Shown here: in pieces, positions 5,783-41,943 of the stretch | How the letters are laid out: the number at the start of each line of letters is the position of its first letter | Position numbering within the stretch: position 1 is the first letter of the stretch | Assembly (NCBI GenBank): GCA_019685575.1 | Contig: JABFQO010000001.1 | Coordinates: 1-64,000, forward strand | Direction: 5' to 3' | Origin: Candidatus Bathyarchaeota archaeon A05DMB-4 | GTDB lineage: Archaea; Thermoproteota; Bathyarchaeia; Bathyarchaeales; SOJC01 | Length of the DNA: 64,000 nucleotides | Notes under the pieces: generated by a model | Seen by the model: the letters and a program-made list of their open reading frames with translations, nothing else | Database searches by the model: none | Told to the model about the DNA's origin: nothing | Made by a program: the position numbers and the translations under genes

Positions 5783-5854
5783 GTTTCGCCATTATTAGTG
5801 CGTACGAGCGTAGATAAAAAATGTTTCATGTTTTTGTGGTTCGGTTTGTTTCAA

Positions 5855-5864
5855 CTTAATATAC
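5855..5864 (+). promoter_or_regulatory. Probable TATA box (BoxA) for the HTH-PfkB gene
   Basis: The AT-rich element CTTAATATAC lies about 33 bases before the GTG at 5897. This suits a nearly leaderless archaeal transcript and argues against the upstream ATG at 5798 as the start. Confidence 0.45.
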
Positions 5865-5896
5865 GGCTTGTTCAAATTACAATCGGGGCGCGTTCA

Positions 5897-7321: not shown

Positions 7322-7338
7322 AATAGTTTAAAAAAAAG

Positions 7339-7701: not shown

Positions 7702-7716
7702 ATGTTTTCCTCCTTT

Positions 7717-8682: not shown

Positions 8683-8683
8683 T

Positions 8684-9220: not shown

Positions 9221-9314
9221 ACATTTCCCTTCTTTTTGTACAATCGTATAGTGAAAGTGGAGAGTTGCTTTTAAAGTTTAACAAGACAGACTGCAGCGTG
9301 TTTTGAGCGTGTTT

Positions 9315-9959: not shown

Positions 9960-10067
9960 CGCTTGTTTTGAGTAATTGATTTACTGCCTTTAGAATTTTT
10001 GCCAAAAAATAGGCTTTGCTGATTCTTTACGCGGTAGAAATAGGAGGAAAGAAACTTGGCGTGTGTT

Positions 10068-10817: not shown

Positions 10818-10946
10818 TTGTGAAACCTCGTCCAACCTATTAAGCAACTGAGAGACATAAGTTTTCTTTAACCCGGCAAAGAGAAAGTTTAATTCTTTCT
10901 GTTGAAAACTGTGTGATAATTGAATAAAAAAGGGTGAGGCAAACAA

Positions 10947-12008
10947 ATGGCGCGTTTATCTAGGCTTAAGATGTCTATGACCATGGCGATTCTCTTAGTG
11001 GGAATAATCTTCGCTGTTTTCCTTGCGGTGCTGATGTACGTGGTCAGCCTTTTCTGGGAAGTGCCGCCGCTTGGGATGTACGCAATAGCCATCATAGGTG
11101 CTGGGTTCTTTATCTTTATCCAGTACCTCATCGGACCAGCAGTCGTCAGAGCCGCCACACGCCTGCGTTACTTGAAGCCTAATGAAAACCCTTGGCTTGA
11201 AGAGACCGTTAAAAAATACGCGGAAAAAAGCGGACTGCCAATGCCTAAATTAGCCATCGTGCCTGACGAGACGCCCAACGCTTTTGTTTTTGGCAGAACG
11301 GCGAGCAGCGCGACTTTGGCGTTGCATGAAGGTTTACTTAAGCAGTTGACTAAGGAAGAAGTGGAAGGCGTGATTGGGCACGAGTTGGGTCACCTTAGAC
11401 ATAAGGATTATCTGGTGATGACTGCACTTTCGGCGGTTCCGTTAATCGCTTATCTCATTGCCCGCGTAAGTTTTGAGGCTATGCGTTTCGGGACTATTGG
11501 ACGCAACCGGAAAGACAGCGGAGTCATTTGGGTGGCAATAATCGCTGCGGCTTTCATTTCATACATCGTTTACATTATTACGCAACTTTGCGTTTTGGGA
11601 TTGAGCCGTTTAAGGGAGCATTATGCTGACGCTTATTCGGCCTATTTGACTGGCGATCCGCGGCAACTCCAAAGCGCGTTGACGAAGATTACCTATGGCT
11701 TGTCGCTTTCGCCCAAGCCTCCAAGCGGGGCGCGAACCTTCTACATCGGCGATCCTGCGACGGCGAAATTAGAGTTTCAAAGCATCATATCACGAAAGCA
11801 AGAGTATGATTTGGACAGAGACGGTGTGCTGGATGAAAGAGAGTTGGAGTTGGCTATGGAGAAGGAAGCGAAGAACACGTGGGTTAAGGTGAACACGTTG
11901 TTCACGACTCACCCGCCGACCTATAAGCGAATACTATTGTTGCGTGAGATTGAAAAAGAAATGGAGACGGGTAAATTTACAAGCAACAACATCTACTCGC
12001 ACATTTAG
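10947..12008 (+). CDS. htpX: HtpX-like M48 zinc metalloprotease
   Basis: A membrane-bound M48 peptidase that degrades damaged membrane proteins. Two transmembrane helices lie in the first 75 residues. The zinc motif HELGHLRH is near residue 145. Two more helices follow (about 155-170 and 190-215), and the third ligand is probably the Glu in LREHYADAYSA, where the family has ExxxD. The length of 353 residues is longer than bacterial HtpX because of an insertion around 270-310 with an Asp-rich DRDGVLDERELE stretch that resembles an EF-hand loop. ATG 10947 follows a GGTGAGG ribosome-binding site. Confidence 0.9.
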   Translation: MARLSRLKMSMTMAILLVGIIFAVFLAVLMYVVSLFWEVPPLGMYAIAIIGAGFFIFIQYLIGPAVVRAATRLRYLKPNENPWLEETVKKYAEKSGLPMPKLAIVPDETPNAFVFGRTASSATLALHEGLLKQLTKEEVEGVIGHELGHLRHKDYLVMTALSAVPLIAYLIARVSFEAMRFGTIGRNRKDSGVIWVAIIAAAFISYIVYIITQLCVLGLSRLREHYADAYSAYLTGDPRQLQSALTKITYGLSLSPKPPSGARTFYIGDPATAKLEFQSIISRKQEYDLDRDGVLDERELELAMEKEAKNTWVKVNTLFTTHPPTYKRILLLREIEKEMETGKFTSNNIYSHI

Positions 12009-12107
12009 CCCGTCATTTTTGTTTGATATTTTTGTAGAAAACAGTTTAATACTCCGACTGTAGGTATAGTAGGAGGGCTTAGAAGGGAAGGAGGTCCTCC
12101 CGCTAAC

Positions 12108-12821
12108 TTGAAGCACATAAAAATCGAGGCTTTCGACTGCCCCAACGCTTGGTTTAAAACGTTAAACGCCATCTGGAACCAAGGCGAATCCTTCAAAATC
12201 GGTTATGGTTCTGAATGCACGAATACTAAAAAACTCAACATAACCATCGAGATTAGCCATCCCGAGAATCGCCCGCTAGTCGACGAGAAGGCACCGTGCG
12301 ACATGAAATATGTGCAGTGGTACGCGTTGAAGTATTTGTGGTCAGGCGAGATTGAAGAGGAAACCTACACGTACGGCAGCCGCTTGAGAACACCCGTGGA
12401 CCAGGTGGAGATGGCGATACGGCGGTATCTGGAAGAACAATGCGACAGACAGGTAACGATGGTGATTAGGCTTCCTGAAGACATCCACAAAACCTTAAAC
12501 AACCGTCAACACGAACCACCATGCCTGAGCCTGATTGACACAGAAATTTTGGACGGACAAATGAACCTTACCTGCTACTTCAGGTCATGGGACGCTTACG
12601 CGGGGTTGCCAGCAAATATTGCGGGCATTCAGTTGTTTAATGAGGCTTTTGTAGAAGAAATCAACCGACGAGGCAACTTAAACATAAAAACAGGAAAACT
12701 TGTGTTTCACTCTAAAAACTGCCACATCTACGAACGACAATTCAAACTTGTAGAAGACCTCTTGAAACCACAACAACCAGACAACCGACGCAAAATGCTC
12801 GTCAAATCGAACGTTGGCTAG
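12108..12821 (+). CDS. thyA: Thymidylate synthase, archaeal ThyA type
   Basis: Makes dTMP from dUMP by reductive methylation with a methylene-pterin donor. The catalytic Cys stands in EPPCLSLID (about residue 143). The conserved nucleotide/folate region CYFRSWDAYAGLPANIAGIQL follows, matching the RSWD...P.N..G signature of the family. At 237 residues it is shorter than bacterial ThyA, as in methanogen enzymes. The start is TTG at 12108, supported by a GGAGGT ribosome-binding site some ten bases before it. In archaea of this kind the donor may be a tetrahydromethanopterin derivative rather than folate; that is an inference. Confidence 0.85.
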   Translation: MKHIKIEAFDCPNAWFKTLNAIWNQGESFKIGYGSECTNTKKLNITIEISHPENRPLVDEKAPCDMKYVQWYALKYLWSGEIEEETYTYGSRLRTPVDQVEMAIRRYLEEQCDRQVTMVIRLPEDIHKTLNNRQHEPPCLSLIDTEILDGQMNLTCYFRSWDAYAGLPANIAGIQLFNEAFVEEINRRGNLNIKTGKLVFHSKNCHIYERQFKLVEDLLKPQQPDNRRKMLVKSNVG

Positions 12822-29877: not shown

Positions 29878-31332
29878 TTATCGTTTTATTGTTTTTATTA
29901 GTTTGTGGTCTTTGTCGTAAACGTTAGCTTTCAACGGCATCTGCCCAATGGCGAAGTGTGTTGCGCAAGCGTTGCATGGGTCGTAGGCCCTGAACGCCAT
30001 CTCCACCATATTCAGCAGCCCATCATCAACTTTTCCGCCCTTGATTAAGCCCTTCGCCGCATCCCGCACAGACATGTTAATCGCCGCACTGTTATTCGTC
30101 GTCGCCACGATCAGGTTCACCTTCTCCACCAACGCGTCCTTATCCAACTTGTAATGATGAATCAACGTTCCCCGCGCAGCCTCCACGATGCCCACGCCTT
30201 CACCCGGCTCGCCCACCGGACGCCGCACTTCTTTGCTCGTAATCTCGGCGTCCCGCGCCAACTCGACCGCCCGCTCAGCAGCATACAACAACTCAATCAA
30301 CCTTGCCCAATGAAACGCCAAAGTATTATGCACAGGCTTACCGCCCAACGCTTCATACATACGCTTGTACTCAGCATCAGCCAAAGGCGTAGCCATCCCA
30401 TCAGCCGCGTTCAAACGCCCCAACGGACCCACACGATACACGCCGCTTCCAGCACCGTCCACGAACCCCTTCCAACCCACCCGCTTCAGGTACGGAAACT
30501 TCACGTAAGACCACGGCTCCACATGCTCCTCAATGTGACTCAAATAATCCCGCGGCTCAAACTTCACAAACTCCCGCCCATCAGGATCCACCACACGCAC
30601 GTCGCCGTCGTAAAAGTTGACACGGTTACGCTTGTCCACCAAACCCATATAATAAGTCCTATGCACGTAAGAACCCGACTTAATCAAACCCAAGTACCGC
30701 TCACTCTTCAAAACCACATCATGAAACAACTTAAGACTAAACTGCGCAAAATCAACAGTCTCAGCCGCCATCCGCTCAATCTCCGCCCTGTCCGCCTCGC
30801 TCAAGGGCTTAGAAATCCCACCCGGCAAACCACACACCGGATGCGTAGCCTTCCCACCAATAATAGCAGTAATCTTCTGCCCGTACGCACGAAACTTAAT
30901 CACCTGCCTACCCACATCCAAGCCCACTTTACTAATCACGCCCAAAATATTCCGCTCCGCAACAGGCGCCTCAGGACCAACCACAAAATCCGGACCGCCT
31001 AAAAAGTAAAAATGCAGAATATGATCGTAGATGATATAGCCACAGTACATCAGCTCCCGAAGCTTCTTCGCCGCAACAGGCGGATCCGCATGAAACGCCG
31101 CGTCCAAAGCCTTCGTCGCCGCAAAATGATGCGCAACAGGACAAACGCCACAAATACGAGTGGTCAACTGCGGCATGTCCTCGGCTTTCCTGCCCTCACA
31201 AAACTTCTCAAACCCACGCAATTCAGGAATAGAAAAGTACGCGTTCTCCACGTCGCCAGCATCATTCAAGAAAATATCAATCCTGCCGTGACCCTCGAGC
31301 CTCGTAATCGGATCGATAGTAATCTGCCTCAT
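29878..31332 (-). CDS. mvhA: [NiFe]-hydrogenase large subunit, MvhA-like (group 3)
   Basis: The catalytic subunit that splits hydrogen and feeds electrons through MvhG and MvhD to the Hdr complex. Both Ni-binding motifs are intact: RICGVCPVAHH (about residues 60-70) and DPCNACATH (about 448-456). About 28 residues follow the last His, a C-terminal extension that a maturation protease should remove. The length of 484 residues is normal for group 3c. It overlaps mvhG by four bases and is the distal gene of the operon mvhD-hdrC-hdrB-mvhG-mvhA. Groups 3b/3d are alternatives, but the Hdr context favours 3c. Confidence 0.92.
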   Translation of the reverse strand: MRQITIDPITRLEGHGRIDIFLNDAGDVENAYFSIPELRGFEKFCEGRKAEDMPQLTTRICGVCPVAHHFAATKALDAAFHADPPVAAKKLRELMYCGYIIYDHILHFYFLGGPDFVVGPEAPVAERNILGVISKVGLDVGRQVIKFRAYGQKITAIIGGKATHPVCGLPGGISKPLSEADRAEIERMAAETVDFAQFSLKLFHDVVLKSERYLGLIKSGSYVHRTYYMGLVDKRNRVNFYDGDVRVVDPDGREFVKFEPRDYLSHIEEHVEPWSYVKFPYLKRVGWKGFVDGAGSGVYRVGPLGRLNAADGMATPLADAEYKRMYEALGGKPVHNTLAFHWARLIELLYAAERAVELARDAEITSKEVRRPVGEPGEGVGIVEAARGTLIHHYKLDKDALVEKVNLIVATTNNSAAINMSVRDAAKGLIKGGKVDDGLLNMVEMAFRAYDPCNACATHFAIGQMPLKANVYDKDHKLIKTIKR

Positions 31333-32300
31333 TCTTTTTTCACCCTCCTACGCAGAATCGACGCAGGAAGCGAATAACGATAAAACGTACCCACAGGGTC
31401 CTTAACCTGACTAATCAACTTCTGCGGGTCATAACCCTCTTGCTTCTCCTCGTCCACACCCAGAATCGAAGCCAACGCGCTCATCATAGCCGCACCTTGC
31501 TCCATCTCACCCGGACAAGAACCACCACAACCCGTACAAGGCATATCCACCTTCAAACACTGCGCACCGCACCCAGCACGCGTCGCCGGACCCATGCACA
31601 AGATTCCCTGCTCAAGAAGGCACAACTCTGGCTCGGGCGGCTTCTCATAAACACGATAAACCTTAGAAATCCGCTTCTTCTCCCTCTTCCTCGGACACTC
31701 GTCACATACTGACTTGTTGGGCGCCAAAACCGAACCCTTCGGAGGCAACTTATTCGTCGCGATGGCTTCAACCGCTTTCACTATCAAATCCACCGGCGGA
31801 GGACACCCCGGCAGAACATAGTCAACTTCGACCGTCTGACCCAGCGTCTTCACCGTGTCATAAAACTCCGGAAGATGCAACTCGCCCTCCTTCACCTTAA
31901 CCGAAGGCGCAGGCACGGCGTGCGACTCGTTCTTGACAGACGGACAATCCATGTAAACCTTCCGAAAAACCTCCTGCCTATCATGCAAGTTAGCCAACCC
32001 AGGAATGCAGCCCTCATGAGCACACGAACCGAAGGCGACGAGGATTTTTGATTTTTTCCGCAGAAGCTTCGCCATTTTCTCGTTTTCCGAGTTCCGTACG
32101 GAACCGTTGAAGAAGCACACGTCTATGCTCTTGTCCGGCATGGCTTCGACATCCTTATACTTCACGTCCATCGCCACCGGCCAAAAAACAATGTCCGCCT
32201 GCTTAGTCACGTCCAATATTTTCTCGTTAATGTCCAGCACGGCTATCTCGCAGCCGCCGCAACTTGCTGCCCAGTAGAAGGCAAATTTTAGTTTCTCCAT
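31329..32300 (-). CDS. mvhG: [NiFe]-hydrogenase small subunit, MvhG-like
   Basis: Carries the iron-sulfur relay of the group 3 hydrogenase. The proximal-cluster cysteines are in SCGGCEIAVLD (residues about 14-17), GSCAHEGC and PGCPPP. The C-terminal part holds further cysteine groups (CDECPRKREKK, CLLEQGILCMGPATRAGCGAQC, CTGCGGSCPG), which fit medial and distal clusters. The length of 323 residues is typical. It follows hdrB by about 20 bases and overlaps mvhA. It works in the cytoplasm as part of the Mvh-Hdr electron-bifurcating complex. Confidence 0.92.
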   Translation of the reverse strand: MEKLKFAFYWAASCGGCEIAVLDINEKILDVTKQADIVFWPVAMDVKYKDVEAMPDKSIDVCFFNGSVRNSENEKMAKLLRKKSKILVAFGSCAHEGCIPGLANLHDRQEVFRKVYMDCPSVKNESHAVPAPSVKVKEGELHLPEFYDTVKTLGQTVEVDYVLPGCPPPVDLIVKAVEAIATNKLPPKGSVLAPNKSVCDECPRKREKKRISKVYRVYEKPPEPELCLLEQGILCMGPATRAGCGAQCLKVDMPCTGCGGSCPGEMEQGAAMMSALASILGVDEEKQEGYDPQKLISQVKDPVGTFYRYSLPASILRRRVKKE

Positions 32301-32319: not shown

Positions 32320-33228
32320 TTATGTTACCAGCGCGATTATTTTTGAGGCGTCTACTCGGAGTTCTTTCATTCCTAGTTCTTCAGGTGTGAAGCCCATGGC
32401 CAAGCCTAGGAGTTGTGTGTAATGGATGGCGGGGATGCCGAAGGTTACGTTGAAGGTGCGCTCTATGCGTGGTTGGTTCGTGTCGAACATCATGTGGCAA
32501 GACGGACACACGGTGATTACGGCTTGCGCGCCGGCTTCTTTCATGTGTAACAGTTTTTCTTTAGTCAAGTTGAGGGTGATGTCTTGATTGATGCCCACGA
32601 TCGGTGCGCCGCAACATGCGGTTTCGTCTTGGTAGGATACGATTTTTGCTCCCGTGGCTTTGATGAGGTTTTTCAGGCTCTGCGGGTCTTCTGGGTCGTC
32701 GAAGCCTATGTACTTCGCGGGACGTAGCATGTGGCATCCGCTGTGTTCTGCAACACAAACGTTTTTGAGGGGTTTGGTTATGGCTGCTTTGATTTTGTCC
32801 AAGCCGACGTCTTCGATGAGGACTCGTGTTATGTGTTTAACGTCGATGGTGCCTTTGAATTCCATGCCTATTTCTTTCAGGTAATGGTTGACTTCTTCTC
32901 TTGTTTTCTTGTCTTCTTTCAATGTCTTGTTCACTTTGCGTAGCATGCCGGCGCATCCGGGACAAAGTGCGGTTATGTTTAGCCCTTTCTGTTCGGCTAG
33001 GCAGAGGTTTCGCGCTGCGAGTGCAAGCATCGTTTCGTGGCTGACTGGGTCGATGGGTAAGCCGCAACAGTTGAATTCGGGCATCTCAACGAGTTCTACG
33101 CCGAGTTTCGGAAGCACTTTTCTCGCGGAAACCTCGTATGAGCCTTCGCGGTACGGTATGTTGCAGCCTAAGAAGAGCAGGTATTTTACGACTTTTGGTT
33201 CTTCTTTCTTTTCCGTTGCTTGTGCCAT
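32320..33228 (-). CDS. hdrB: Heterodisulfide reductase subunit B (HdrB), copy 1
   Basis: HdrB is the catalytic subunit that reduces a heterodisulfide with two non-cubane [4Fe-4S] clusters. Both CCG-domain motifs are complete. First: FLGCNIPYREG, FNCCGLP and LCPGCAGM. Second: HSGCHMLRP, TACCGAP and VCPSCHMMF. The length of 302 residues fits. It sits two bases after hdrC and before mvhG. In organisms without methanogenesis its acceptor may be another disulfide or thiol compound, so the CoM-S-S-CoB substrate should not be assumed. Confidence 0.92.
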   Translation of the reverse strand: MAQATEKKEEPKVVKYLLFLGCNIPYREGSYEVSARKVLPKLGVELVEMPEFNCCGLPIDPVSHETMLALAARNLCLAEQKGLNITALCPGCAGMLRKVNKTLKEDKKTREEVNHYLKEIGMEFKGTIDVKHITRVLIEDVGLDKIKAAITKPLKNVCVAEHSGCHMLRPAKYIGFDDPEDPQSLKNLIKATGAKIVSYQDETACCGAPIVGINQDITLNLTKEKLLHMKEAGAQAVITVCPSCHMMFDTNQPRIERTFNVTFGIPAIHYTQLLGLAMGFTPEELGMKELRVDASKIIALVT

Positions 33229-33230: not shown

Positions 33231-34058
33231 TTAACTCCTCTTGCTTGTTTCAAGAAGTTTGGAGAAGCCGGTGGCGTTGAACAGTTTGGCGATGTCTTCC
33301 GTGTTCCCTTTTGGTAGGGGCGGCAAGCCTATGTCTCCTCGCTTCTTTATTCTTAATTCTGGAATCTTGAACGCGTAACCCGTCTGCAAGATGGCTGTGC
33401 CCAATTCTTTGAACAATGGAGGCATATATCCCTCTTTTACTGCCAAGTGCCGCAGAGCCCGGAGGACGCTGGAAATCTCCACGCCTTGTGGGCATCTGTC
33501 AACGCACGTGTAGCAGGCAGCGCAAAGCCATATCGAGTCGCTTTTTAAAACTTGGTCTTTTATTCCTAACTGGGTCATTCTCAAAATCTTGCGTGGGCGG
33601 TATTCCTCGTTGAATCTTGCTACGGGACAATCTGCAGTGCATGTGCCACATTGGAAACACAGCATAAGCCGTTCTGCGCCGGGAATTTTCTTGACTTCGT
33701 ACTTGAAACGAGCGCTTTCGGGCGTGATTTTGAGCACGGTTTTTTGGGGCATTTCTTTCTTTTCAACTGTGGGTATGGGTGGAGAAGGTGTCGGCATGGG
33801 TGGCGGCAAGATTGGTTGAGGAGTTGGCGGTGGCGTCTCCATTTTGACCACTATTTGTGGGGGCGCTTCGGTTTCTTGCGGTTTTTCTATGATGGGCTGT
33901 TCTGTTGGTTTGGCTTCTTTTTCTTCTATCTTCGGCGGTGTTTCTTCTGTTGGTTTTGATTTTGCTTCTGTCTTAAATTTGGGCTGTTTTTTCGCCCTTT
34001 TTCTCGTTTTTGCCGATGTTACTGTTTTGGTTTTTTTCTTTCTGCGTGTTTGTGGCAT
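33231..34058 (-). CDS. hdrC: Heterodisulfide reductase subunit C (HdrC) with long N-terminal extension
   Basis: The C-terminal 165 residues are HdrC: two [4Fe-4S] motifs, CFQCGTCTADCP and CAACYTCVDRCP, that pass electrons from HdrA to HdrB. Ahead of this are about 105 residues found in no ordinary HdrC. A Lys/Arg-rich run (PQTRRKKKTKTVTSAKTRKR) is followed by a Pro/Glu/Lys-rich stretch with PPPTPQPILPPPMPTPSPP. No start codon closer to the core looks better, and the downstream mvhD-to-hdrC spacing of five bases supports ATG 34058. The extension may be a disordered tether or nucleic-acid or membrane contact. Confidence 0.9.
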   Translation of the reverse strand: MPQTRRKKKTKTVTSAKTRKRAKKQPKFKTEAKSKPTEETPPKIEEKEAKPTEQPIIEKPQETEAPPQIVVKMETPPPTPQPILPPPMPTPSPPIPTVEKKEMPQKTVLKITPESARFKYEVKKIPGAERLMLCFQCGTCTADCPVARFNEEYRPRKILRMTQLGIKDQVLKSDSIWLCAACYTCVDRCPQGVEISSVLRALRHLAVKEGYMPPLFKELGTAILQTGYAFKIPELRIKKRGDIGLPPLPKGNTEDIAKLFNATGFSKLLETSKRS

Positions 34059-34063: not shown

Positions 34064-34501
34064 TTAGTTGCCTCCTTCTGTTCTTAACGAGTTAGGGCCG
34101 AGTTTTTTAATTTCGTTCGTCATGTCCTTAATAACGGTTGCGAAACGGTCACCCTCGGACGCCGAGACCCATTCCAGTCGTAGCCTTTCCGGCTCGATGC
34201 CGAACTGTTTAAGAACCTCCTTCAAAAGAAGCACTCTTCTTTGTGCTTTGAAGTTACCCGTCAAATAATGGCAGTCGCTGGGGAGATGACAACCCGCAAC
34301 GAGTACACCGTCGGCTCCGTCTTTGAAGGCTTCAAGAATAAACACGGGATCCACGCGACCACTGCACATGACCCGGATGATTCGCACGGTCGGCGGATAT
34401 TGAATTCGACTCACGCCTGCAAGGTCTGCACCCGCGTATGCGCACCAGTTGCAGAGGAAAGCAACGATTTTTGGTTCAAACTCAGTTTTGGCTTCGGTCA
34501 T
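34064..34501 (-). CDS. mvhD: Hydrogenase delta subunit MvhD
   Basis: A small [2Fe-2S] protein linking the Mvh hydrogenase to HdrA. The expected cysteines are present: FLCNWCAYAGADLAG, VMCSGRVDP and GCHLPSDCHY. The length of 145 residues matches. It is the first gene of the operon; the upstream 212-base gap (34502-34713) holds its promoter region but no gene. Its intact cysteines contrast with the degenerate MvhD-like tail on HdrA (39410-39844). Confidence 0.93.
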   Translation of the reverse strand: MTEAKTEFEPKIVAFLCNWCAYAGADLAGVSRIQYPPTVRIIRVMCSGRVDPVFILEAFKDGADGVLVAGCHLPSDCHYLTGNFKAQRRVLLLKEVLKQFGIEPERLRLEWVSASEGDRFATVIKDMTNEIKKLGPNSLRTEGGN

Positions 34502-34713
34502 GCATCGTCACTCCTGTAAAATTGGTGTAAACTCGTTTTCAGCGCGCGTTTTTTGGGCATTTTGGGTTCACGAGGCTGTGATGGAGAAACTTAAGAATGG
34601 AACAACTCTTACATAAAGTTTCCACAATTTCAACAAAAACAACCACAATTCTGGAGAGCATCAAGATTATCCATAAAAAAGGAAGACTTGCGGATGTAAG
34701 GAAAAAAAGAGGT

Positions 34714-35613
34714 TTATTTTTGCAGAGCAGTTACGGAAAGCCGAGACAGTAATTGTTTGGCTTTTTTAATGTTCGATATTTTTCTTCTGCAACTCAAGCA
34801 TACGCCAATCGTTTCTTTCAAGTAGTCATGATACCTCTTGTATTCGGCGACTTTTTCTTCAGTTCGCTCCAAGGCTCGTTTCAGTTGTCGCTGCGGCATG
34901 AAGTAGGCTCCACACGAACTGCATTTCTGCATGTCCACGTCGGTGGTGACGCTGGCTTGTTTGCGGTCGGTGAAAACCAAGTGGTATTCGCGGGTGAGTT
35001 TTATCGCGTCTTCTGGGCATTCATCTTGACAGAACGCACAGTATGAGCAGTGACCATAATCGACTTTCACGGTGCGTTTGCCGTTGTTCTCTGTGAGTTC
35101 GATGGCGTCAGAGCTGCAAACCTGAGCACACGCACCACAGCCTATACATTTTTCGCTGTCGAATTCATGTCTTCCTCGGTATTCTTCAGGCGTTGCCCAA
35201 TAGTCTTCTTTCTCTTCCAACTTGGCGCCTAAAGCCTTCGCAATCGAGGTTACGATTGCCTGTGGACGTGGGGGACAGCCGCTGATATAAAAGTTGACGG
35301 GTATGATTTTGTCGGGTGGTCCCACCATCGAGTAGCCTTTGTCGAAGATTTCTTTTGTCAAAGCACAATTGCCGACGGCGACCACGAGTTTTGGCGGTTG
35401 AAGTTTCTCGTAGATGCTCTTTAGTTCTTCCATCGTTTTTATGTTGACGCCGCCAGTGACGGCTAAGACGTTTGCTTCCTCAGGCGTAAATACCACTCCC
35501 ACTCCGAGGTCTGCAAGCTTATACCTTGGAACAAGACATTCCAGTATTTGTACGTCGCATCCGTTGCATCCGGCTGCCATAAACCTGTAGACAGAGATTT
35601 TTGGTTGTGCCAT
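34714..35613 (-). CDS. Group 4-type hydrogenase small subunit (NuoB-like) fused to ferredoxin domain
   Basis: The N-terminal 140 residues are a NuoB/EchC-like small subunit. The proximal-cluster cysteines lie in AAGCNGCDVQ, GNCALTKE and SGCPPRP. A NuoI-like part with two [4Fe-4S] motifs (CIGCGACAQVC and CSYCAFCQDEC, about 155-200) follows. A tail has two more CxxC pairs (CSSCG and CLSCR) joined by a helix. It is the last gene of the operon that begins at 38810. Fusion of the small subunit with a ferredoxin and a zinc- or iron-binding tail is unusual. It should carry electrons from the NiFe site to the neighbouring HdrB or ferredoxin. Confidence 0.87.
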   Translation of the reverse strand: MAQPKISVYRFMAAGCNGCDVQILECLVPRYKLADLGVGVVFTPEEANVLAVTGGVNIKTMEELKSIYEKLQPPKLVVAVGNCALTKEIFDKGYSMVGPPDKIIPVNFYISGCPPRPQAIVTSIAKALGAKLEEKEDYWATPEEYRGRHEFDSEKCIGCGACAQVCSSDAIELTENNGKRTVKVDYGHCSYCAFCQDECPEDAIKLTREYHLVFTDRKQASVTTDVDMQKCSSCGAYFMPQRQLKRALERTEEKVAEYKRYHDYLKETIGVCLSCRRKISNIKKAKQLLSRLSVTALQK

Positions 35614-35635
35614 TTTTCATGTTCCCTCCTTTCCA

Positions 35636-36763
35636 TCACTCCAGCTTGGCAAGGCGTTTCTTGCCCGTTTTCGCGTTGATTATCGTCACTCGGTCAGTGC
35701 AGGCGAAGCATGGGTCGATGCTTTCGATGATTAGTCGGGCGTTTTGTAGATAGTCGCCGCGCATCATTTCGATAATCGTAAAGTCGTTGGCAAATGACGG
35801 TGTGCGCACTTTGACTCTTTCTGGAATGTTGGTGCCGTTTGATTTGATGTAGTAGAATAGTTCGCCACGTGGTGCTTCGACTCGGCCGATGGACTCTGTT
35901 ACAAGCGGGTCGCCGAGTTCTCCGACGATGTCGCCTTTCGGCAAGTTGTCTATTGCTTGGTTTATCATTTTCATGCTTTCGTACGTTTCTCGTGCACGGA
36001 CGAGCGATTTGGCGCGGACGTCGCAGTCTTTTTCAGTTATAACTTCCCAGTCGAGTTCGCCGTACGCAGCGTAGGGATCATCCTTTCTCGCGTCGCTTTT
36101 TATGCCAGAACCGCGAAGCACAGGCCCAACGGCTCCGACTGCCAAGGCACGTTCTTTTCTGAGAATTCCCACACCCTTCGTCTTCTTCGTAAAGCGTCCA
36201 TTATCATCCAACAGCGTCATTATGTGGTCTGACAATGGTTTCATGTCTTTCAGCACGCTTCGAATTCGCTGTATCTTCTTCTCGTTAAGGTCTCTACGAA
36301 CCCCGCCGATAGTGTTGATTAGGTAGTTCATACGGTTGCCCGTGAGAAACTCCAGCAAGTCTTGGACTTTTTCCCGTTCACCCATAATCTTAAGGAAAGC
36401 CTCAGTATCATGCAAGCTATGCGCCAGCACACCGAACCACAGGTAATGGCTGTGTAACCGTTCGATTTCCATGTAGATGGTTCGTAGGTACCTTGCACGG
36501 TCCGGGACTTGCACGTCAATGACGCCTTCAGTGGTCTGCGCGTAAGCGAGCGTGTGGATGCCTGAGCAGATGCCGCAGATGCGTTCGGCTAACGCGAGGT
36601 TTTGTAGATAAGTCTTGGTTGTGAACAGTTTTTCGATTCCGCGGTGCACGTAGCCGAGTTCGATGTCGGCGTCGATGATTTTATTGTTTTCCACTGTCAA
36701 GGTGAATTTTTCTGGCTCCACGAGTTGTGGACGGAACGGGCCGATTTGGACTATTTCTGGCAT
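35636..36763 (-). CDS. Group 4-type [NiFe]-hydrogenase large subunit (NuoD-like)
   Basis: It resembles the EchE/HycE/NuoD family: early LGYVHRGIEKLF, then ERICGICSGIHT (Ni motif 1), and DPCFACTDR (Ni motif 2) at the end. All four Ni-ligand cysteines are kept, so it should be a true hydrogenase rather than a complex I homologue. About 18 residues after the second motif form a cleavable tail. The length of 375 residues is typical. Neighbours are a second HdrB (three-base gap) and the small subunit (22-base gap). No membrane subunit is encoded near it, so the complex appears soluble. Confidence 0.9.
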   Translation of the reverse strand: MPEIVQIGPFRPQLVEPEKFTLTVENNKIIDADIELGYVHRGIEKLFTTKTYLQNLALAERICGICSGIHTLAYAQTTEGVIDVQVPDRARYLRTIYMEIERLHSHYLWFGVLAHSLHDTEAFLKIMGEREKVQDLLEFLTGNRMNYLINTIGGVRRDLNEKKIQRIRSVLKDMKPLSDHIMTLLDDNGRFTKKTKGVGILRKERALAVGAVGPVLRGSGIKSDARKDDPYAAYGELDWEVITEKDCDVRAKSLVRARETYESMKMINQAIDNLPKGDIVGELGDPLVTESIGRVEAPRGELFYYIKSNGTNIPERVKVRTPSFANDFTIIEMMRGDYLQNARLIIESIDPCFACTDRVTIINAKTGKKRLAKLE

Positions 36764-36765
36764 TT

Positions 36766-37653
36766 TTAAATCGCCTCCATTTTCTGCGCAAGTTGAAGAA
36801 CTGGGCTTCGGTGGAAGTCTAGGCTTAGTTCTTTAGAGGGCACACCGAACGATAAAGCGAGCAGTTCCATGATGTTAATGCAGGGCAAGTTGTGTCGTAT
36901 GCCGTATCTTCTGAGCATCACTTGGCCGGTTTCAAACTGCACGGTGCATGCGGGGCATGTTAGGACGACTGCTTCTGCGCCCATGTCTTCCATGCGTTTC
37001 AGTTTAAGCGCAAGTCTTTCTTTAAGCGAGAATTCTTCGTCTGCTTGCATGCCTGGATAACCACAGCACAGTTTTTCTAGTCCATAGTCAACCACTGTTG
37101 CGCCGGTGACTTGGGCGATTTGTTTCATCATGTTAGGTTTCCGCATCATGTCTTCGCCCTCGTGGCCTCGGTAAAGGTGGCAGCCGTAATGCATGGCTAC
37201 TTTGATTTTCTGAGGTTTCTTGACGAGTCCTTTTAACTTGGCGAAGCCTATGTCTTCGGCGAGCACCTCGACGGCGTGTTTCACGTCTATCGTGCCCTTG
37301 TACTGCTTTCCAAACTCGCGGAGAAGTTGGTTGGTTTCTTTCAGCATCTTCGGGTCGTGCTTCAGCGTTTCATTCGCCTCGATAAGTGTCTCGTAGCAAC
37401 CGTTGCACAGAGTCATAAGGTCCAAGCCCTTTTCTTCAGCCATTGCGAGGTTTCTTGCTGCTGCTGCAAGCCAAGCCTTTTGGTCGATTAGGCGGGAGAT
37501 GACGGGTTCTGGGCAGCATGTGTAGCCCTCCAAGTCGACTGCTTCTATGCCTGTTTTTTCGAACACTTTTTTTGCCGCAATTTCTATGCTCGGAAGCCGC
37601 AGAGGAATCATGCAGCCGAGGAATGAAACATACTTAACCATGCTTGTTTTCAC
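36766..37653 (-). CDS. hdrB: Heterodisulfide reductase subunit B (HdrB), copy 2
   Basis: A second HdrB of 295 residues, placed inside the group 4-type hydrogenase operon. Both cysteine sets are complete: FLGCMIPLR, YTCCPEP and LCNGCYET, then HYGCHLYRG, KLCCGYPG and TCPACTVQF. It overlaps the NuoC-like gene by four bases and precedes the large subunit by three, so it is translated with them. It differs clearly from copy 1 (32320), notably in the first CC motif, which is followed by Pro rather than Gly. It probably receives electrons from the soluble hydrogenase or the adjacent four-cluster ferredoxin. Confidence 0.9.
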   Translation of the reverse strand: MKTSMVKYVSFLGCMIPLRLPSIEIAAKKVFEKTGIEAVDLEGYTCCPEPVISRLIDQKAWLAAAARNLAMAEEKGLDLMTLCNGCYETLIEANETLKHDPKMLKETNQLLREFGKQYKGTIDVKHAVEVLAEDIGFAKLKGLVKKPQKIKVAMHYGCHLYRGHEGEDMMRKPNMMKQIAQVTGATVVDYGLEKLCCGYPGMQADEEFSLKERLALKLKRMEDMGAEAVVLTCPACTVQFETGQVMLRRYGIRHNLPCINIMELLALSFGVPSKELSLDFHRSPVLQLAQKMEAI

Positions 37654-38330
37654 TCTCCTCCTACTTTGTAGCGCAACCGTTTCTTTTCCATGTCATAGCC
37701 AACTTTCTCTGCGAACCCAGACTCTTCCATCAGACTCTGGAATTCTTTCATGGCTTTTTCATCAGTGAAAGTCAAAGGCGGAGTGCGCGGTAGTCCTGCT
37801 TCGACGCGTTTCTTTTCGATGAACGATGATACTGAAAACACGCAGCCTGAAGATATCAGTGCCTCGGCTGAGGCTTTGGCTTGTGAAGGCAAATCGACTC
37901 CATGCGGTTCTCGTAATGGTCTTTTATCGTTCGGCCAATTTGCTGGAAGAATCAGTGGTTGAGGTTGGTGGTGGTTGGTGAATTTGGCGCCGAAAAGGTC
38001 TGAGATTTCTCTTTCTATGAAGTTTGCGGCTGGAACGATGTCGACTATTGAGTCTATTGTGTTGTCTTCTTTGGGTTTTACGGTTCTAAATGTAACGACA
38101 TTGCCGCCGACGTGGAAGTGGTGTAGGAATTCTAGGTCTAAACCGTGATCCACAGCAGAGACGGTGATGAGTCTTGTTTCATACTTTTGCGTAAGGGTTT
38201 TCACGGCTTTTCTCAGCGCTTCGGGCCTGATTCGTAGGAAGACACGGTGTTTTTTTGGAGATTCTGCTTCAAAAACGTCGTTGGCTAGGGTTTGTTTCAT
38301 GTCTTTGATTATTTCTTGTTCATTTACCAT
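37650..38330 (-). CDS. NuoC-like hydrogenase subunit
   Basis: It matches the 30-kDa subunit family of complex I and group 4 hydrogenases (NuoC/EchD). The key segment is IVPAANFIEREISDLFGAKFTNH (about 115-137), followed by WPNDKRPLREP. About 70 C-terminal residues with a helix-rich, charged sequence extend beyond the usual end. It stabilises the NuoD-like subunit and is not expected to carry cofactors. It is the second gene of the operon. Confidence 0.87.
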   Translation of the reverse strand: MVNEQEIIKDMKQTLANDVFEAESPKKHRVFLRIRPEALRKAVKTLTQKYETRLITVSAVDHGLDLEFLHHFHVGGNVVTFRTVKPKEDNTIDSIVDIVPAANFIEREISDLFGAKFTNHHQPQPLILPANWPNDKRPLREPHGVDLPSQAKASAEALISSGCVFSVSSFIEKKRVEAGLPRTPPLTFTDEKAMKEFQSLMEESGFAEKVGYDMEKKRLRYKVGGE

Positions 38331-38342
38331 GTTTCTTCACTC

Positions 38343-38810
38343 CTATGGGTAGTTTTTCCTGTTGAATTCCCATGCTTCTTCTCGTTTTGCTACGCGGATT
38401 GCTTGGGGTGAACAGAATTTGGCGCATTGCGGTTCGCCGTTGCAGAAGTCGCATTTCATGGAGATTCTGTAGTCTTTGTTGAACCATGGCACGCCCAGAG
38501 GACAAGATACCGTGCATGTTTGACAACCAATGCATTTCATCTGATTTATCCGCACCAGCCCAGTTTTTTCGTCCTTTATTATGGCTTCTTTTGGGCACGA
38601 TGCGACGCAGACGGGTTCATCACAGTGTTGACAGTAGATGGCTTCTAACGCGCCGTTGTTTTGGTCGAAGACAACGTGTAAATGTGCCTTGTTGAAGTCT
38701 ATCTGGTTGAAATGAAAGAACGAGCAGGCGATTTCGCAGTACCGACAACATGTGCATTTTTGCGGGTCATAAAGCAAAACTTTCTGTTGTGCAGTAGCTT
38801 GTTTTGACAT
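38343..38810 (-). CDS. Ferredoxin-type electron carrier with four [4Fe-4S] sites (HycB/CooF-like)
   Basis: 155 residues with four cysteine groups: CTCCRYCEIAC, CQHCDEPVCVASCP, CIGCQTCTVSCP and CDFCNGEPQCAKFC. The pattern matches HycB/CooF-type iron-sulfur subunits that link a hydrogenase to an electron donor. It is the first gene of the soluble group 4-type operon, 12 bases before the NuoC-like gene. It likely ferries electrons between the hydrogenase, HdrB copy 2 and perhaps HdrA. Confidence 0.92.
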   Translation of the reverse strand: MSKQATAQQKVLLYDPQKCTCCRYCEIACSFFHFNQIDFNKAHLHVVFDQNNGALEAIYCQHCDEPVCVASCPKEAIIKDEKTGLVRINQMKCIGCQTCTVSCPLGVPWFNKDYRISMKCDFCNGEPQCAKFCSPQAIRVAKREEAWEFNRKNYP

Positions 38811-38944: not shown

Positions 38945-39433
38945 TTGACGTTGCTCAGCCAACTGGAAACGTGGTTACGCCATAGCAAGAACATTGTAAT
39001 CCTCGGCGTAGGCAACCCACTCCGCGGAGACGACGCAGTGGGTACGCAAATTTTACGGCAACTGCAAGGCAAAGTGCCAAATCACGTGAACCTTATACCG
39101 TGCGAAACTGTGCCCGAAAACTTCACAAGCAAAATCATAAAGTTCAACCCCACCCACGTGCTTATCATAGACTCCGCTGAAATGAATGAAGAAGCAGGCG
39201 CCGTCAGGCTTTTCCCCGCCACAAAAATCGCTGGATTACCAGTTTCCACACACAACGCTCCGCTTTCAATGCTGACGGATTATTTGAAACACGCCATAAA
39301 CCCGAAGATGGCTTTGCTGGGAATTCAACCTAAGCAAACAGAACTTAATCAAGGCTTGAGCAAAGAAGTCGAAAAAGCAAGCGGTCAAGTTGTGATGGTT
39401 CTTGAGCGCTTATTGAACCGTCGTGGAGGCTAG
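38945..39433 (+). CDS. hycI: Hydrogenase maturation protease (HycI/HyaD type)
   Basis: Cuts the C-terminal tail from a [NiFe] large subunit after Ni insertion. Family marks are the N-terminal VILGVGNPLRGDDAVGTQI with the metal-binding Asp (about residue 25), LIIDSAEMNEEAGAV with the second Asp (about 75) and a His near THNAPLS (about 102). The length of 162 residues is typical. It diverges from the group 4-type operon and overlaps the end of hdrA by 24 bases. Both large subunits in the cluster carry a cleavable tail, so it could serve either. Confidence 0.93.
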   Translation: MTLLSQLETWLRHSKNIVILGVGNPLRGDDAVGTQILRQLQGKVPNHVNLIPCETVPENFTSKIIKFNPTHVLIIDSAEMNEEAGAVRLFPATKIAGLPVSTHNAPLSMLTDYLKHAINPKMALLGIQPKQTELNQGLSKEVEKASGQVVMVLERLLNRRGG

Positions 39434-41785
39434 TTTCTCTTTTATCTTCGCTCTAACCTCTGGTTTTAGCGGTCCTATTTTCTGGATTCTTTGGGCGGTT
39501 GTTTCGAAAATATTGATTATCTTATCATATTGTGGCAGTGTGGTGGCTATGGACATTAACCTCAGCGAGTCGACGCCGTAGTTGCGGAGTTCTTTCTTCA
39601 TCTGGTTCACGTATTCCCGCTGTGCGTCTTCCTTGAACACACTATCGTCGCCCTCCACGAAGATTACACCATCCGCGCCTGACGCGAACGCATGCAACAC
39701 ATGTTTCAAGCCGACTCGTCCCGTGCTGGGGACGCTGATGATTTCCACGTTAGGCGTGTAGTTGGTCCGTGTTTGTCCCGCCAAATCCGCAGACCCGTAA
39801 GCCGTGGCGCCTTCGATGAACGCGATTATTTTTGGCGAAACGCCTCCTTGGCTTACGCCTTCAATCTGCGCCATCAACTGAGCGTCCGTACAATGGTTGA
39901 GTTCAATAGCATTTTGAGGACAACGGGGCACGCAGATACCGCAGCCTACACACGACACGGGGTTAATCGAATATCCCTTGTCAGTCTTCGTGACCGCACC
40001 GACTGGGCAAACTTGCATACAAACGCCACAATTGTTGCATTTTTCTGGCATGATGTATGCGATTTCGGGTGAGACTGGGATTTCGCCTTTTCCAACAAAA
40101 GTTGCAACTCGGGAAGCCGTTGCCATGGCTTCGAGCGTTGTCTCTCTGACGTCTTTGGGGCTTAGAACGCATCCACACGCGAATATTCCTTCTTTCTGGC
40201 TGTCTACTGGTTTGAGCTTGTAGTGTCTCTCGACGAGGAAACCATCCGCGCCGACCGATGCGCCGATTTTCTTGGCAAGTTCTGGAAGCCCAAGCGGCGG
40301 AGTAATTCCTGCGCTGAGGATAACAAGGTCGAATGTGCCTTCTATGTCTCTGCCGAGAAACGTGTCTTCTGCCCTAACTAAAAGTTGTCCATCAGGCTGC
40401 GGAATTATCTCTGAAACCCTGCCCCTAACAAACTTGACTTGGTGATCCAAAGCCTTAGCGTAAAACTCTTCATACCCCTTACCATCAGCCCTAATGTCAA
40501 TGTAGAAAATCCACGGCTCAGCATCGGGCACGGCTTTCTGCAACAACAAAGCCTGCTTAATCGCCGCCATACATCCGATTTTGCAGCAGTGTTCCACGCC
40601 TTTGCCTTTGTTGAGCATGCGGCTACCTACGCAAAGAACGAAGGCAACCTTCTTGGGCATCTTGTTGTCCGAAGGTCGACGGAAGCCTTGCAGCATTAGG
40701 CGTTCAAACTGCAGGTTCGTGACAATATTGGGGTGCAAGCCGTAACTGTATTCTTCGAAGATTTTTGGGTCAATCTGCTCAAAGCCCGTCGCGGTCACGA
40801 TGGCTCCAATATCTAATTCAATTGTTTCGTCTTTCTGGTCGAAGTTGACAGCGTGGGCTTTACAGAATTTTTCGCAGACTCGGCAGATGCCCTTTTGGAA
40901 GAACAAACAGTGCTCTTTGTCGATGATGTAAGTGCGGGGCACCGCTTGCCTAAACGGCGTGTAAATGGCTTTTCTTTGCTGCGTCGCCGCTTCGAATTCG
41001 CTGGCAACCTTAACTGGACATTTCTTTGCACACTCCCCGCAAGCAGTACATGCAGGACCAACGTACCGCGGATGCTTTGTGACGATGGCGCGGTAGTTGC
41101 CCGGTGTGCCCTCGATAGCCGTAACTTCGGCGTTTGTGAAGATTTTAATGTTGGGGTGCTGAGCAGCGTAAACCATCCTAGGCGTGAGGATGCATTGTGA
41201 GCAGTCGAGGGTTGGGAAGGTTTTGCTGAGTTGTGCCATGTGTCCGCCGATGCTTGGGCTTTTTTCTACGAGATAAACTGGGAAGCCTTTGTCGGCGAGT
41301 TCCGTGGACGCCATTATGCCAGCGACGCCTCCGCCGATGACTAGGACGCTTTTCTTTACGGGCATTGATTTCTGCTCGAGCGGTTGCAGTTCTCGGGCAC
41401 GTTTGACGGCGCCTCGGACAAGGTCTATGGCCTTGATTGTGGCTTTTTCCTTGTCGCTATGCACCCAACTGACTTGTTCACGAAGGTTCACCATCTCAAA
41501 ATAATACGGGTTCAACCCGGCAGATTGTACTGTGCGTCTAAAAGTGTCCAGGTGCATACGGGGAGAGCATGAGGCGACTACGATGCGGTTTAAGCCGTTC
41601 TCTTTTATACCCTTCACTATCATTTCCTGCCCCGGGTCGCTGCAGACGTATTCGTAGTTTACGGCAACCGTAACACCGTCTAGTTTGGACACGGCTTCAC
41701 GGACTTTTTCGACATCCACGGTGTCGCTGATGTTGCCTCCACAGTGGCAGATGTAAACGCCGATTTTAGGTTCCTCGTTGGTCAT
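39410..41785 (-). CDS. hdrA: HdrA fused to a degenerate MvhD domain (QmoB-like)
   Basis: HdrA is the flavin subunit where electron bifurcation occurs. From ATG 41785 (791 residues) the order is IGVYICHCGGNISD, an FAD Rossmann motif VLVIGGGVAGIMAS near 145, and the cluster signature TLDCSQCILTPRM. Iron-sulfur groups follow at CTACGECAKKCP and CRVCEKFCKAH. Two C-terminal ferredoxin motifs are CNNCGVCMQVCP and CVGCGICVPRCP. Residues 648-791 align with MvhD but lack its cysteines: FIEGATAYGSADLAG replaces FLCNWCAYAGADLAG. QmoB also has an HdrA-MvhD layout. Residues upstream of 41785 are not family-like. Confidence 0.92.
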   Translation of the reverse strand: MTNEEPKIGVYICHCGGNISDTVDVEKVREAVSKLDGVTVAVNYEYVCSDPGQEMIVKGIKENGLNRIVVASCSPRMHLDTFRRTVQSAGLNPYYFEMVNLREQVSWVHSDKEKATIKAIDLVRGAVKRARELQPLEQKSMPVKKSVLVIGGGVAGIMASTELADKGFPVYLVEKSPSIGGHMAQLSKTFPTLDCSQCILTPRMVYAAQHPNIKIFTNAEVTAIEGTPGNYRAIVTKHPRYVGPACTACGECAKKCPVKVASEFEAATQQRKAIYTPFRQAVPRTYIIDKEHCLFFQKGICRVCEKFCKAHAVNFDQKDETIELDIGAIVTATGFEQIDPKIFEEYSYGLHPNIVTNLQFERLMLQGFRRPSDNKMPKKVAFVLCVGSRMLNKGKGVEHCCKIGCMAAIKQALLLQKAVPDAEPWIFYIDIRADGKGYEEFYAKALDHQVKFVRGRVSEIIPQPDGQLLVRAEDTFLGRDIEGTFDLVILSAGITPPLGLPELAKKIGASVGADGFLVERHYKLKPVDSQKEGIFACGCVLSPKDVRETTLEAMATASRVATFVGKGEIPVSPEIAYIMPEKCNNCGVCMQVCPVGAVTKTDKGYSINPVSCVGCGICVPRCPQNAIELNHCTDAQLMAQIEGVSQGGVSPKIIAFIEGATAYGSADLAGQTRTNYTPNVEIISVPSTGRVGLKHVLHAFASGADGVIFVEGDDSVFKEDAQREYVNQMKKELRNYGVDSLRLMSIATTLPQYDKIINIFETTAQRIQKIGPLKPEVRAKIKEKLASTTVQ

Positions 41786-41836
41786 GACGGTTTTCTCCAA
41801 AGAGGTGAATGTGAGGTTGTAGAATAACGATAAAGC

Positions 41837-41848
41837 GTTATATAAGCA
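41837..41848 (-). promoter_or_regulatory. Probable hdrA promoter (BoxA)
   Basis: CTTATATAACGC on the minus strand lies about 52-63 bases before the hdrA start at 41785. This supports the shorter start, because the longer frame would begin almost on the TATA box. Confidence 0.45.
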
Positions 41849-41943
41849 CTTAAGCATCACGCTTTTTCAGCAAAAACGCGCTTTCTTAAGCAAAGAAGAA
41901 GAATTGGGCGCATCTGAAGAACGGCGCGAATAATGAAAGGCGA

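What the first reader, a model, noticed from the sequence alone, without database searches (positions are those of the whole stretch)
34714..38810. Soluble group 4-type [NiFe]-hydrogenase operon with its own HdrB and no membrane subunits
Seen: four-cluster ferredoxin, NuoC-like, HdrB, NuoD-like with both Ni motifs (RICGIC and DPCFAC), and a NuoB-like subunit fused to ferredoxin, with gaps of at most 22 bases or overlaps. Known: group 4 hydrogenases are normally membrane-bound ion pumps, and HdrB is normally in a complex with HdrA/HdrC. Here the usual membrane genes (NuoH/NuoL-like) are absent and HdrB copy 2 is translated with the hydrogenase. Inference: a new soluble hydrogen:disulfide oxidoreductase module, possibly bifurcating together with HdrA at 39410.
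Basis: partly seen in the sequence, partly recalled or inferred. Interest (0 to 1): 0.78.

Follow-up and report, generated by a model that had tools for sequence, protein, structure and literature searches.

The report
Soluble hydrogenase that lost its membrane
Some little-known archaea carry a hydrogen-using enzyme of a class that normally sits in the cell membrane and pumps ions, but this version has dropped the whole membrane part and its anchors and is instead built together with a subunit that splits disulfide bonds, so it probably uses hydrogen to reduce disulfides inside the cell.

Summary
Five tightly packed genes (34714-38810, minus strand) encode a four-cluster ferredoxin, NuoC-like, HdrB, a NuoD-like subunit with both Ni-binding motifs, and a NuoB-ferredoxin fusion. 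The same order recurs, without any membrane gene, in 13 more Bathyarchaeia-order genomes, three Hadarchaeota and one further phylum-mate. The catalytic subunits form one clade (100/100). It branches with HdrB-carrying group 4 hydrogenases that do have NuoH (97/92), inside membrane-bound group 4, so the soluble state is derived. Three genomes of at least 92% completeness, this one included, have no NuoH gene anywhere. All complete soluble copies also lack the N-terminal membrane-anchoring segments of NuoB and NuoI; operons whose NuoH merely lies elsewhere keep them. HdrB-linked group 4 hydrogenases (Ehd, Ehe, Drh) are known, but as membrane complexes; I found no description of the soluble clade. 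Most likely it is an H2:disulfide oxidoreductase wired like formate hydrogenlyase, with HdrB in place of the formate dehydrogenase. The core has no flavin, and close HdrA/Mvh partners are absent from several genomes that keep the operon, so obligate bifurcation with HdrA at 39410 is not supported. The disulfide is unknown; the genome lacks McrA.

The parts
38343..38810 (-). Fd4: CooF/HycB-like ferredoxin with four [4Fe-4S] motifs, first gene of the operon
   Evidence: Pfam Fer4_11 1.2e-15; PDB relatives include HycB3 and FHL subunit 2; present in the soluble loci and upstream of the membrane HdrB type
37650..38330 (-). NuoC-like subunit
   Evidence: Complex1_30kDa 2.4e-19
36766..37653 (-). HdrB copy 2: disulfide-reductase subunit with two complete CCG domains
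   Evidence: two CCG domains; ten cluster cysteines invariant in 13 sequences; family profile matches solved HdrB 5odc_B at 2.4e-101 over full length
35636..36763 (-). NuoD-like [NiFe]-hydrogenase large subunit with L1 RICGICSGIH, L2 DPCFACTDR and a 17-residue C-terminal tail
   Evidence: best PDB matches FHL HycE 7z0s_E and Mbh alpha 6cfw_L; trees
34714..35613 (-). Small subunit: NuoB/HycG-like domain fused to HycF-like ferredoxin (proximal cluster, two [4Fe-4S], C-terminal CxxC...CxxC metal site), without the N-terminal membrane anchors
   Evidence: family profile matches 7z0s_G over 6-130 and 7z0s_F over 141-279; cysteines invariant; anchors missing
38945..39433 (+). HycI-type hydrogenase maturation protease, divergent from the operon
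   Evidence: TIGR00142 hycI equivalog 129 bits over its cut-off of 119.1; also near the operon in L034, L037, L040, L041, L043, L044, L049
38837..38844 (-). TATA-box-like TATAAAAA about 27-34 nt upstream of the Fd4 start codon; possible promoter of the operon
   Evidence: read from the sequence; no archaeal promoter test available
34702..34708 (-). T-run just after the NuoB-ferredoxin stop codon, possible archaeal terminator separating the operon from MvhD
   Evidence: read from the sequence; not tested
39410..41860 (-). HdrA with a C-terminal MvhD-like domain that has lost all its cysteines; neighbour, probably partner of the Mvh-HdrBC set; not shown to be part of the five-subunit enzyme
   Evidence: HdrA2 model 853 bits, FlpD domain 678-796; no Cys in the domain, same in L035
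34064..34501 (-). MvhD (neighbouring operon)
   Evidence: FlpD 1.4e-57
33231..34058 (-). HdrC-like (neighbouring operon)
   Evidence: Fer4_8/Fer4_17
32320..33228 (-). HdrB copy 1 (neighbouring Mvh-Hdr operon), a lineage separate from HdrB copy 2
   Evidence: CCG 3.7e-31; separate clade 100/100 in the HdrB tree
31329..32300 (-). MvhG, small subunit of group 3c hydrogenase (neighbour)
   Evidence: VhuG 1.3e-62
29878..31332 (-). MvhA, large subunit of group 3c hydrogenase (neighbour)
   Evidence: VhuA 5.2e-127

Best explanation
The five genes encode one cytosolic [NiFe]-hydrogenase:disulfide oxidoreductase. H2 is split at the Ni-Fe site in NuoD. Electrons run through the proximal cluster in NuoB, two clusters in the fused ferredoxin domain and four in Fd4 to the two non-cubane [4Fe-4S] clusters of HdrB, where a disulfide is reduced to two thiols. 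The layout is that of formate hydrogenlyase, with HdrB in place of the formate dehydrogenase. The enzyme descends from an HdrB-carrying, membrane-bound, ion-pumping group 4 hydrogenase that lost NuoH, the antiporter subunits and both N-terminal membrane anchors, so it no longer pumps ions. Shown: gene content, conserved order, absence of membrane genes, loss of anchors, intact metal ligands, phylogeny. Inferred: subunit contacts, electron path, H2-uptake direction, disulfide substrate. Confidence that it is cytosolic is about 0.9; that it is an H2:disulfide oxidoreductase working in the uptake direction about 0.6.
For: Group 4 catalytic subunit with both Ni motifs and a cleavable-type tail beside HycI. 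Five-gene order conserved in Bathyarchaeia, Hadarchaeota and G106. No NuoH in G000, G032, G044, all at least 92% complete. Soluble clade 100/100; with membrane HdrB hydrogenases 97/92, nested in membrane group 4. Anchors: 14-16 residues before the NuoB CxxC and no ARxKSPW segment in soluble copies, against 22-28 or more in membrane copies; the NuoI helix with KPxTxKYP is also gone. Control: L048, L049, L072, L104, L110 lack an adjacent NuoH yet keep both anchors, and G047 and G050 encode NuoH on another contig. The GPxHP histidine, present in 36 of 37 membrane NiFe sequences, is Arg/Lys in the 13 Bathyarchaeia-order soluble sequences. HdrB: ten Cys invariant, full-length match to solved HdrB. 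The fusion matches HycG then HycF including its metal-site cysteines (PMC9474812).
Against: No biochemistry. All genomes are MAGs. The substrate is unknown and McrA is absent, so CoM-S-S-CoB is not an obvious substrate. Docking of HdrB on Fd4 is inferred. An uncoupled H2-driven disulfide reduction would waste energy unless another Hdr complex recovers it. The membrane HdrB group's own monophyly is weak (77/17) and the outgroup branches are very long, so the rooting of the loss scenario carries some doubt. The GPxHP histidine is retained in the Hadarchaeota and G106 copies.
Confidence: 0.62

Rival explanations
1. The hydrogenase is the H2-oxidising front end of a larger flavin-based bifurcating complex: it docks on HdrA (39410) and HdrBC, as an alternative to MvhAGD, so that H2 reduces ferredoxin and a disulfide together.
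For: HdrA and MvhD-HdrC-HdrB1-MvhGA flank the operon in the window. HdrA-HdrC-HdrB lies next to it in L035, and HdrC-HdrB1 follows it in L034, L036, L040 and L041 without Mvh genes.
Against: No flavin protein in the conserved core. HdrA is adjacent in only 2 loci. In G026, G032, G038, G044, G047, G050, G062 and G065 the only HdrA found is a distant one (44-49% identity), and of the relatives only G041, G062 and G077 have an Mvh-type MvhA at 70% or more. Hadarchaeota and G106 loci have no Hdr neighbours besides the operon's own HdrB. HycI lies antisense between HdrA and the operon.
Confidence: 0.2
2. It is a membrane complex after all: NuoH or other anchors are encoded elsewhere or were missed, as in other Ehd-type operons.
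For: Group 4 hydrogenases and the published HdrB-linked ones are described as membrane-bound (PMC9723716, PMC6046458). Some relatives with the soluble operon have NuoH genes.
Against: No NuoH in three near-complete genomes. In G026, G038, G041, G062 and G077 the NuoH hits lie beside another NuoD paralogue. Both membrane-anchoring segments are deleted only in this clade, while operons with NuoH elsewhere keep them.
Confidence: 0.06
3. HdrB acts on something other than a small disulfide, e.g. a protein-bound lipoamide or persulfide, or works as an electron-transfer subunit as in other CCG proteins (SdhE, TfrB, LdhH).
For: The genome lacks McrA. Culexarchaeial Ehe clusters carry GcvH (PMC9723716). 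CCG proteins serve several enzymes; HdrB copy 2 also matches SdhE, LdhH and TfrB models.
Against: Best matches by far are true HdrB models and structures, with all cluster ligands conserved. No GcvH hit on this window's contig.
Confidence: 0.3
4. It is an ancestral soluble group 4 enzyme, a relic from before hydrogenase and Mrp antiporter joined.
For: Current models derive complex I from a soluble [NiFe]-hydrogenase plus an Mrp antiporter (PMC9474812 introduction).
Against: The rooted tree nests the clade inside membrane group 4 together with HdrB-carrying membrane enzymes (97/92). The fused NuoI part keeps the xFRG remnant of the anchor region just before its clusters.
Confidence: 0.05

Closest known systems
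Ehd (Methanomethylicia), Ehe (Culexarchaeia) and 'Ehd-like' Bathyarchaeia complexes
   Same: HdrB encoded with a group 4 hydrogenase; the NuoH-bearing loci found here share the order Fd4-NuoC-HdrB-NuoD, and their NuoD is the nearest outside clade
   Different: They carry membrane subunits including an ion antiporter and are described as membrane-bound (PMC9723716); here NuoH, antiporter and membrane anchors are gone and NuoB is fused to NuoI
Drh, disulfide-reducing hydrogenase of Methanocellales
   Same: HdrB plus group 4 hydrogenase without an antiporter subunit; proposed direct H2-dependent heterodisulfide reduction
   Different: Described as putatively membrane-associated (PMC6046458, PMC9723716) and from methanogens; its sequence could not be reached here, so its NuoH content was not tested
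Formate hydrogenlyase (E. coli FHL-1, PDB 7z0s)
   Same: HycE/HycG/HycF/HycB-like chain, including the C-terminal HycF cysteine quartet; best PDB match of the large subunit
   Different: FdhF replaced by HdrB; HycC and HycD absent; HycG and HycF fused in one chain
MvhADG-HdrABC (group 3c)
   Same: H2-dependent disulfide reduction through HdrB in the cytosol; a copy is encoded next door
   Different: Different hydrogenase group (MvhA vs NuoD-like); flavin HdrA and MvhD are essential there and absent from this core
hdrB2 within an 'fpo-like' operon of hot-spring Bathyarchaeia Family-4.3 (PMC8407382)
   Same: Probably partly the same genes: isolate JZ_bin_23, whose name matches the MAG naming of that study, carries the soluble operon (L112)
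   Different: Read there as an Fpo complex with lost subunits and with fpoBDHL always present; the hydrogenase nature and the soluble state were not noted in the text I could read

Membership tests
Group 4 [NiFe]-hydrogenases | L1 C[GS][ILV]C[AGNS]xxH and L2 [DE][PL]Cx[AGST]Cx[DE][RL] motifs in the large subunit | tested here: met
   CGICSGIH and DPCFACTDR; motif definition quoted in PMC7886697
Group 4 [NiFe]-hydrogenases | Catalytic subunit branches with Mbh/Hyc-type enzymes, not group 3 | tested here: met
   PDB best matches HycE and MbhL
Group 4 [NiFe]-hydrogenases | Membrane arm (NuoH-like plus antiporter-like subunits) | tested here: not met
   none in operon or genome
Ehd/Ehe HdrB-linked membrane hydrogenases | HdrB encoded within the hydrogenase operon | tested here: met
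Ehd/Ehe HdrB-linked membrane hydrogenases | NuoH-like and antiporter subunits | tested here: not met
Drh (Methanocellales) | Phylogenetic placement with Drh large subunits | not testable with these tools
   no Methanocella genome could be reached; literature only (PMC9723716, PMC6046458)
Respiratory complex I / Fpo | NuoD without the Ni-binding cysteines; NuoH and antiporter subunits | tested here: not met
   four Ni cysteines present; no NuoH/L/M/N
MvhADG-HdrABC bifurcating complex | Flavoprotein HdrA as conserved partner | tested here: not met
   HdrA adjacent in 2 of about 17 loci; no close orthologue in several genomes
HdrB (CoB-CoM heterodisulfide reductase subunit B) | Two CCG domains with ten cysteines for two non-cubane clusters | tested here: met
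HdrB (CoB-CoM heterodisulfide reductase subunit B) | Reduces CoM-S-S-CoB | not testable with these tools
   no McrA in the genome, so CoM-S-S-CoB is not an expected metabolite
Formate hydrogenlyase | Formate dehydrogenase FdhF as terminal module | tested here: inconclusive
   no FdhF-like gene in the operon; not searched genome-wide

The most novel reading that the evidence does not exclude
A previously undescribed clade of the complex I/group 4 hydrogenase superfamily that lost its whole ion-pumping membrane arm and its membrane anchors and became a cytosolic H2:disulfide oxidoreductase, shared by Bathyarchaeia and Hadarchaeota.
Probability: 0.6. Interest if true: 0.75.

Novelty: new variant of a known kind. 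Interest (0 to 1): 0.63.

Why it matters
Group 4 hydrogenases and complex I are defined by coupling a redox arm to ion pumping. A natural clade in which evolution removed the pump and its docking segments but kept the catalysis gives an uncoupled reference. It shows which residues may have been kept only for coupling (for example the GPxHP histidine and the GxxTxxMxxW and ADxP positions changed here). It also offers a soluble group 4 enzyme that may be far easier to purify and study than a membrane one. It adds a direct, flavin-free route from H2 to disulfides in uncultured sediment archaea whose H2 metabolism is usually read as Mvh/Hdr bifurcation or Fpo-like pumping.

Tried and rejected
Membrane subunits encoded elsewhere: searched and not found. 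Complex I without Ni: rejected. Ancestral soluble relic: not supported by the rooted tree. Methanogenic CoM-S-S-CoB role: no McrA. Lipoyl-carrier link: six GcvH hits in the genome, none on this contig; the two on contig C10 beside a second Mvh-Hdr cluster seem to lack the lipoyl lysine by eye, so not pursued. The sigma-70 promoter scan is not informative for an archaeon (7 found, 6.8 expected). Two region requests failed for length. dS could not be estimated because synonymous sites are saturated.
Full report
OBSERVATION. The five ORFs lie exactly at 34714-38810 on the minus strand, with gaps of 12, -4, 2 and 22 bases. Pfam and NCBIfam identify them as a multi-cluster ferredoxin, a NuoC/30-kDa subunit, an HdrB with two CCG domains, a NuoD-like hydrogenase large subunit, and a NuoB-like subunit continuing into a ferredoxin. 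The large subunit has both Ni motifs and 17 residues after DPCFACTDR, a typical tail for a HycI protease, and a HycI-type protease (above its curated cut-off) is divergently encoded at 38945-39433. Around the operon lie HdrA (39410-41860) and MvhD-HdrC-HdrB1-MvhG-MvhA (34501-29878).

IS IT A HYDROGENASE OR COMPLEX I? By sequence the best solved relatives of the large subunit are formate hydrogenlyase HycE (7z0s_E) and Pyrococcus Mbh alpha (6cfw_L), both aligned through the two Ni motifs, ahead of all complex I subunits. The small subunit has CxxC...C...C in place of the complex I CC pair, then a HycF-like domain whose two clusters and C-terminal CxxC...CxxC are invariant. The equivalent quartet in HycF binds a metal ion near the FdhF interface (PMC9474812).

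CONSERVATION. A search of 101 relatives found closely related large subunits (mostly 70-75% identity) in 13 other genomes, G050's copy being split over two contigs. All complete loci have Fd4-NuoC-HdrB-NuoD-NuoB~Fd and no transmembrane gene within the unit. A phylum-wide sample of 398 genomes added G106 (55% identity, another family), again without NuoH. A named-genome scan added Hadarchaeota (L113, L114, L120) and further Bathyarchaeota (L111; L112 appears to be the same contig as G041's). A contig labelled Methylomirabilota (L115) has Fd4-NuoC-HdrB-NuoD but neither NuoB nor a NuoD tail, and may be mis-binned or decayed. The same scans showed a second type, Fd4-NuoC-HdrB-NuoD-NuoH-NuoI-NuoB (L092-L095, L121, L125; partial in L117 and L124; Fd4 sits apart or is missing in L093 and L094), resembling the published Ehd-like complexes.

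IS IT REALLY SOLUBLE? Four lines agree. First, NuoH is absent from the whole genome here and in G032 and G044 (94, 97 and 92% complete), and NuoL/M/N is absent here. Second, the two N-terminal segments that tie NuoB and NuoI to the membrane arm are gone. Membrane-type NuoB has 22-28 or more residues before its CxxC, with an ARxKSPW(I/V)xH stretch, and NuoI has about 42-47 residues with an amphipathic-looking helix and KPxTxKYP; soluble NuoB parts start 14-16 residues before the CxxC (longer ORF starts in L035, L038 and L111 reach back over the preceding gene or use an upstream start), and NuoI is joined to NuoB just before its xFRG stretch. The amphipathic helix at the membrane surface is described as present in all solved structures of the superfamily (PMC9474812). 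Third, there is an internal control: operons L048, L049, L072, L104 and L110 also lack an adjacent NuoH but keep both anchors, and G047 and G050 encode NuoH on another contig. G047 carries both kinds of operon. So deletion of anchors marks true loss, not relocation. Fourth, positions conserved in 37 membrane NiFe sequences changed: the GPxHP histidine (36 of 37) is Arg or Lys in all 13 Bathyarchaeia-order soluble sequences (retained in Hadarchaeota and the G106 lineage), and the GxxTxxMxxW and ADxP positions changed in nearly all. That these face NuoH is my inference from knowledge of complex I, not measured here.

PHYLOGENY. In a careful ML tree of 53 NuoD proteins the 18 soluble sequences form one clade (100/99). 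With group 3 outgroups and E. coli HycE, HyfG and NuoD added, soluble (100/100) plus membrane HdrB types form one clade (97/92) nested in membrane-bound group 4. Hence the simplest history is that HdrB joined once and the membrane arm was lost once. Caveats: very long outgroup branches and weak monophyly of the membrane HdrB group (77/17). HdrB trees separate operon HdrBs (26 sequences) from HdrB1 (100/100), so the operon HdrB is an old resident, not a copy of its neighbour.

HOW IT MOST LIKELY WORKS. HdrB has all ten ligands for two non-cubane clusters and the family profile matches solved HdrB over its full length. Fd4 is HycB/CooF-like. The inferred wire is NiFe - NuoB cluster - 2 clusters - 4 clusters - HdrB, that is, formate hydrogenlyase with HdrB in place of FdhF. 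No domain in the core is a known flavin binder, so the core itself should not bifurcate. H2 (about -414 mV, general knowledge) to a disulfide is exergonic, so uptake is the likely direction. The disulfide is unknown; McrA is absent.

THE HdrA QUESTION. HdrA adjoins the operon only in the window and in L035; HdrC-HdrB1 adjoins it in four further loci. Eight other carriers (G026, G032, G038, G044, G047, G050, G062, G065) have only a distant HdrA (44-49% identity), and most carriers lack an Mvh-type MvhA. The operon is therefore retained without these partners. Cooperation in this genome remains possible, but obligate bifurcation is not supported. A T-run follows the last gene and a TATA-like box precedes the first, consistent with a separate transcription unit; neither was tested.

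RELATION TO KNOWN SYSTEMS. HdrB-interacting group 4 hydrogenases are known: Ehd, Ehe, Drh, Ehg and an 'Ehd-like' cluster with Bathyarchaeia sequences, all treated as membrane-bound (PMC9723716). Drh lacks an antiporter but is called putatively membrane-associated (PMC6046458). Qi et al. noted hdrB2 inside an fpo-like operon in hot-spring Bathyarchaeia and read it as Fpo (PMC8407382). I found no description of a soluble version; subscription papers, including the original Drh paper, are not in the library, and figures could not be seen. I therefore rate it a new variant of a known kind.

LIMITS. All genomes are MAGs. Transmembrane counts come from a simple hydropathy window. Drh could not be placed in the tree. 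No structure or biochemistry was available.

Noticed in passing
window 39410-41860, C-terminal ~120 aa; L035 HdrA: HdrA carries a C-terminal MvhD-like domain that has lost every cysteine, so it cannot hold the [2Fe-2S] cluster; the same in the orthologue in L035, while a separate intact MvhD is encoded at 34064-34501.
   Followed up: partly
L196 (G000:C10:1-18000), 1399-12585: A second complete MvhA-MvhG-HdrB-HdrC-MvhD-HdrA-MvhD cluster in the same genome, with two neighbouring proteins that carry a GcvH-like domain and seem, by eye, to lack the lipoyl lysine.
   Followed up: partly
L048, L049, L072, L104, L110: Other group 4 operons (NuoB-NuoC-NuoD-NuoI, or NuoB-NuoD-NuoI without NuoC) with no adjacent NuoH but with membrane anchors kept; G047 and G050 have NuoH on another contig.
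   Followed up: partly
L115 (contig labelled Methylomirabilota), 196-3588: Fd4-NuoC-HdrB-NuoD cluster with no NuoB after it and a NuoD ending at DPCLSCTDR without a tail; either a mis-binned archaeal contig, a decayed operon or a transfer.
   Followed up: partly
L100, L102, L105: HdrA-MvhD-NuoC-NuoD-NuoH-NuoB-antiporter clusters in another family of the phylum (f44), resembling the published Ehg complex of Nezhaarchaeia.
   Followed up: no
L034, L036, L040, L041: HdrC-HdrB1-HypF (with HypC) follow the soluble hydrogenase directly, without HdrA or Mvh genes nearby; what this HdrBC pair works with is unclear.
   Followed up: partly
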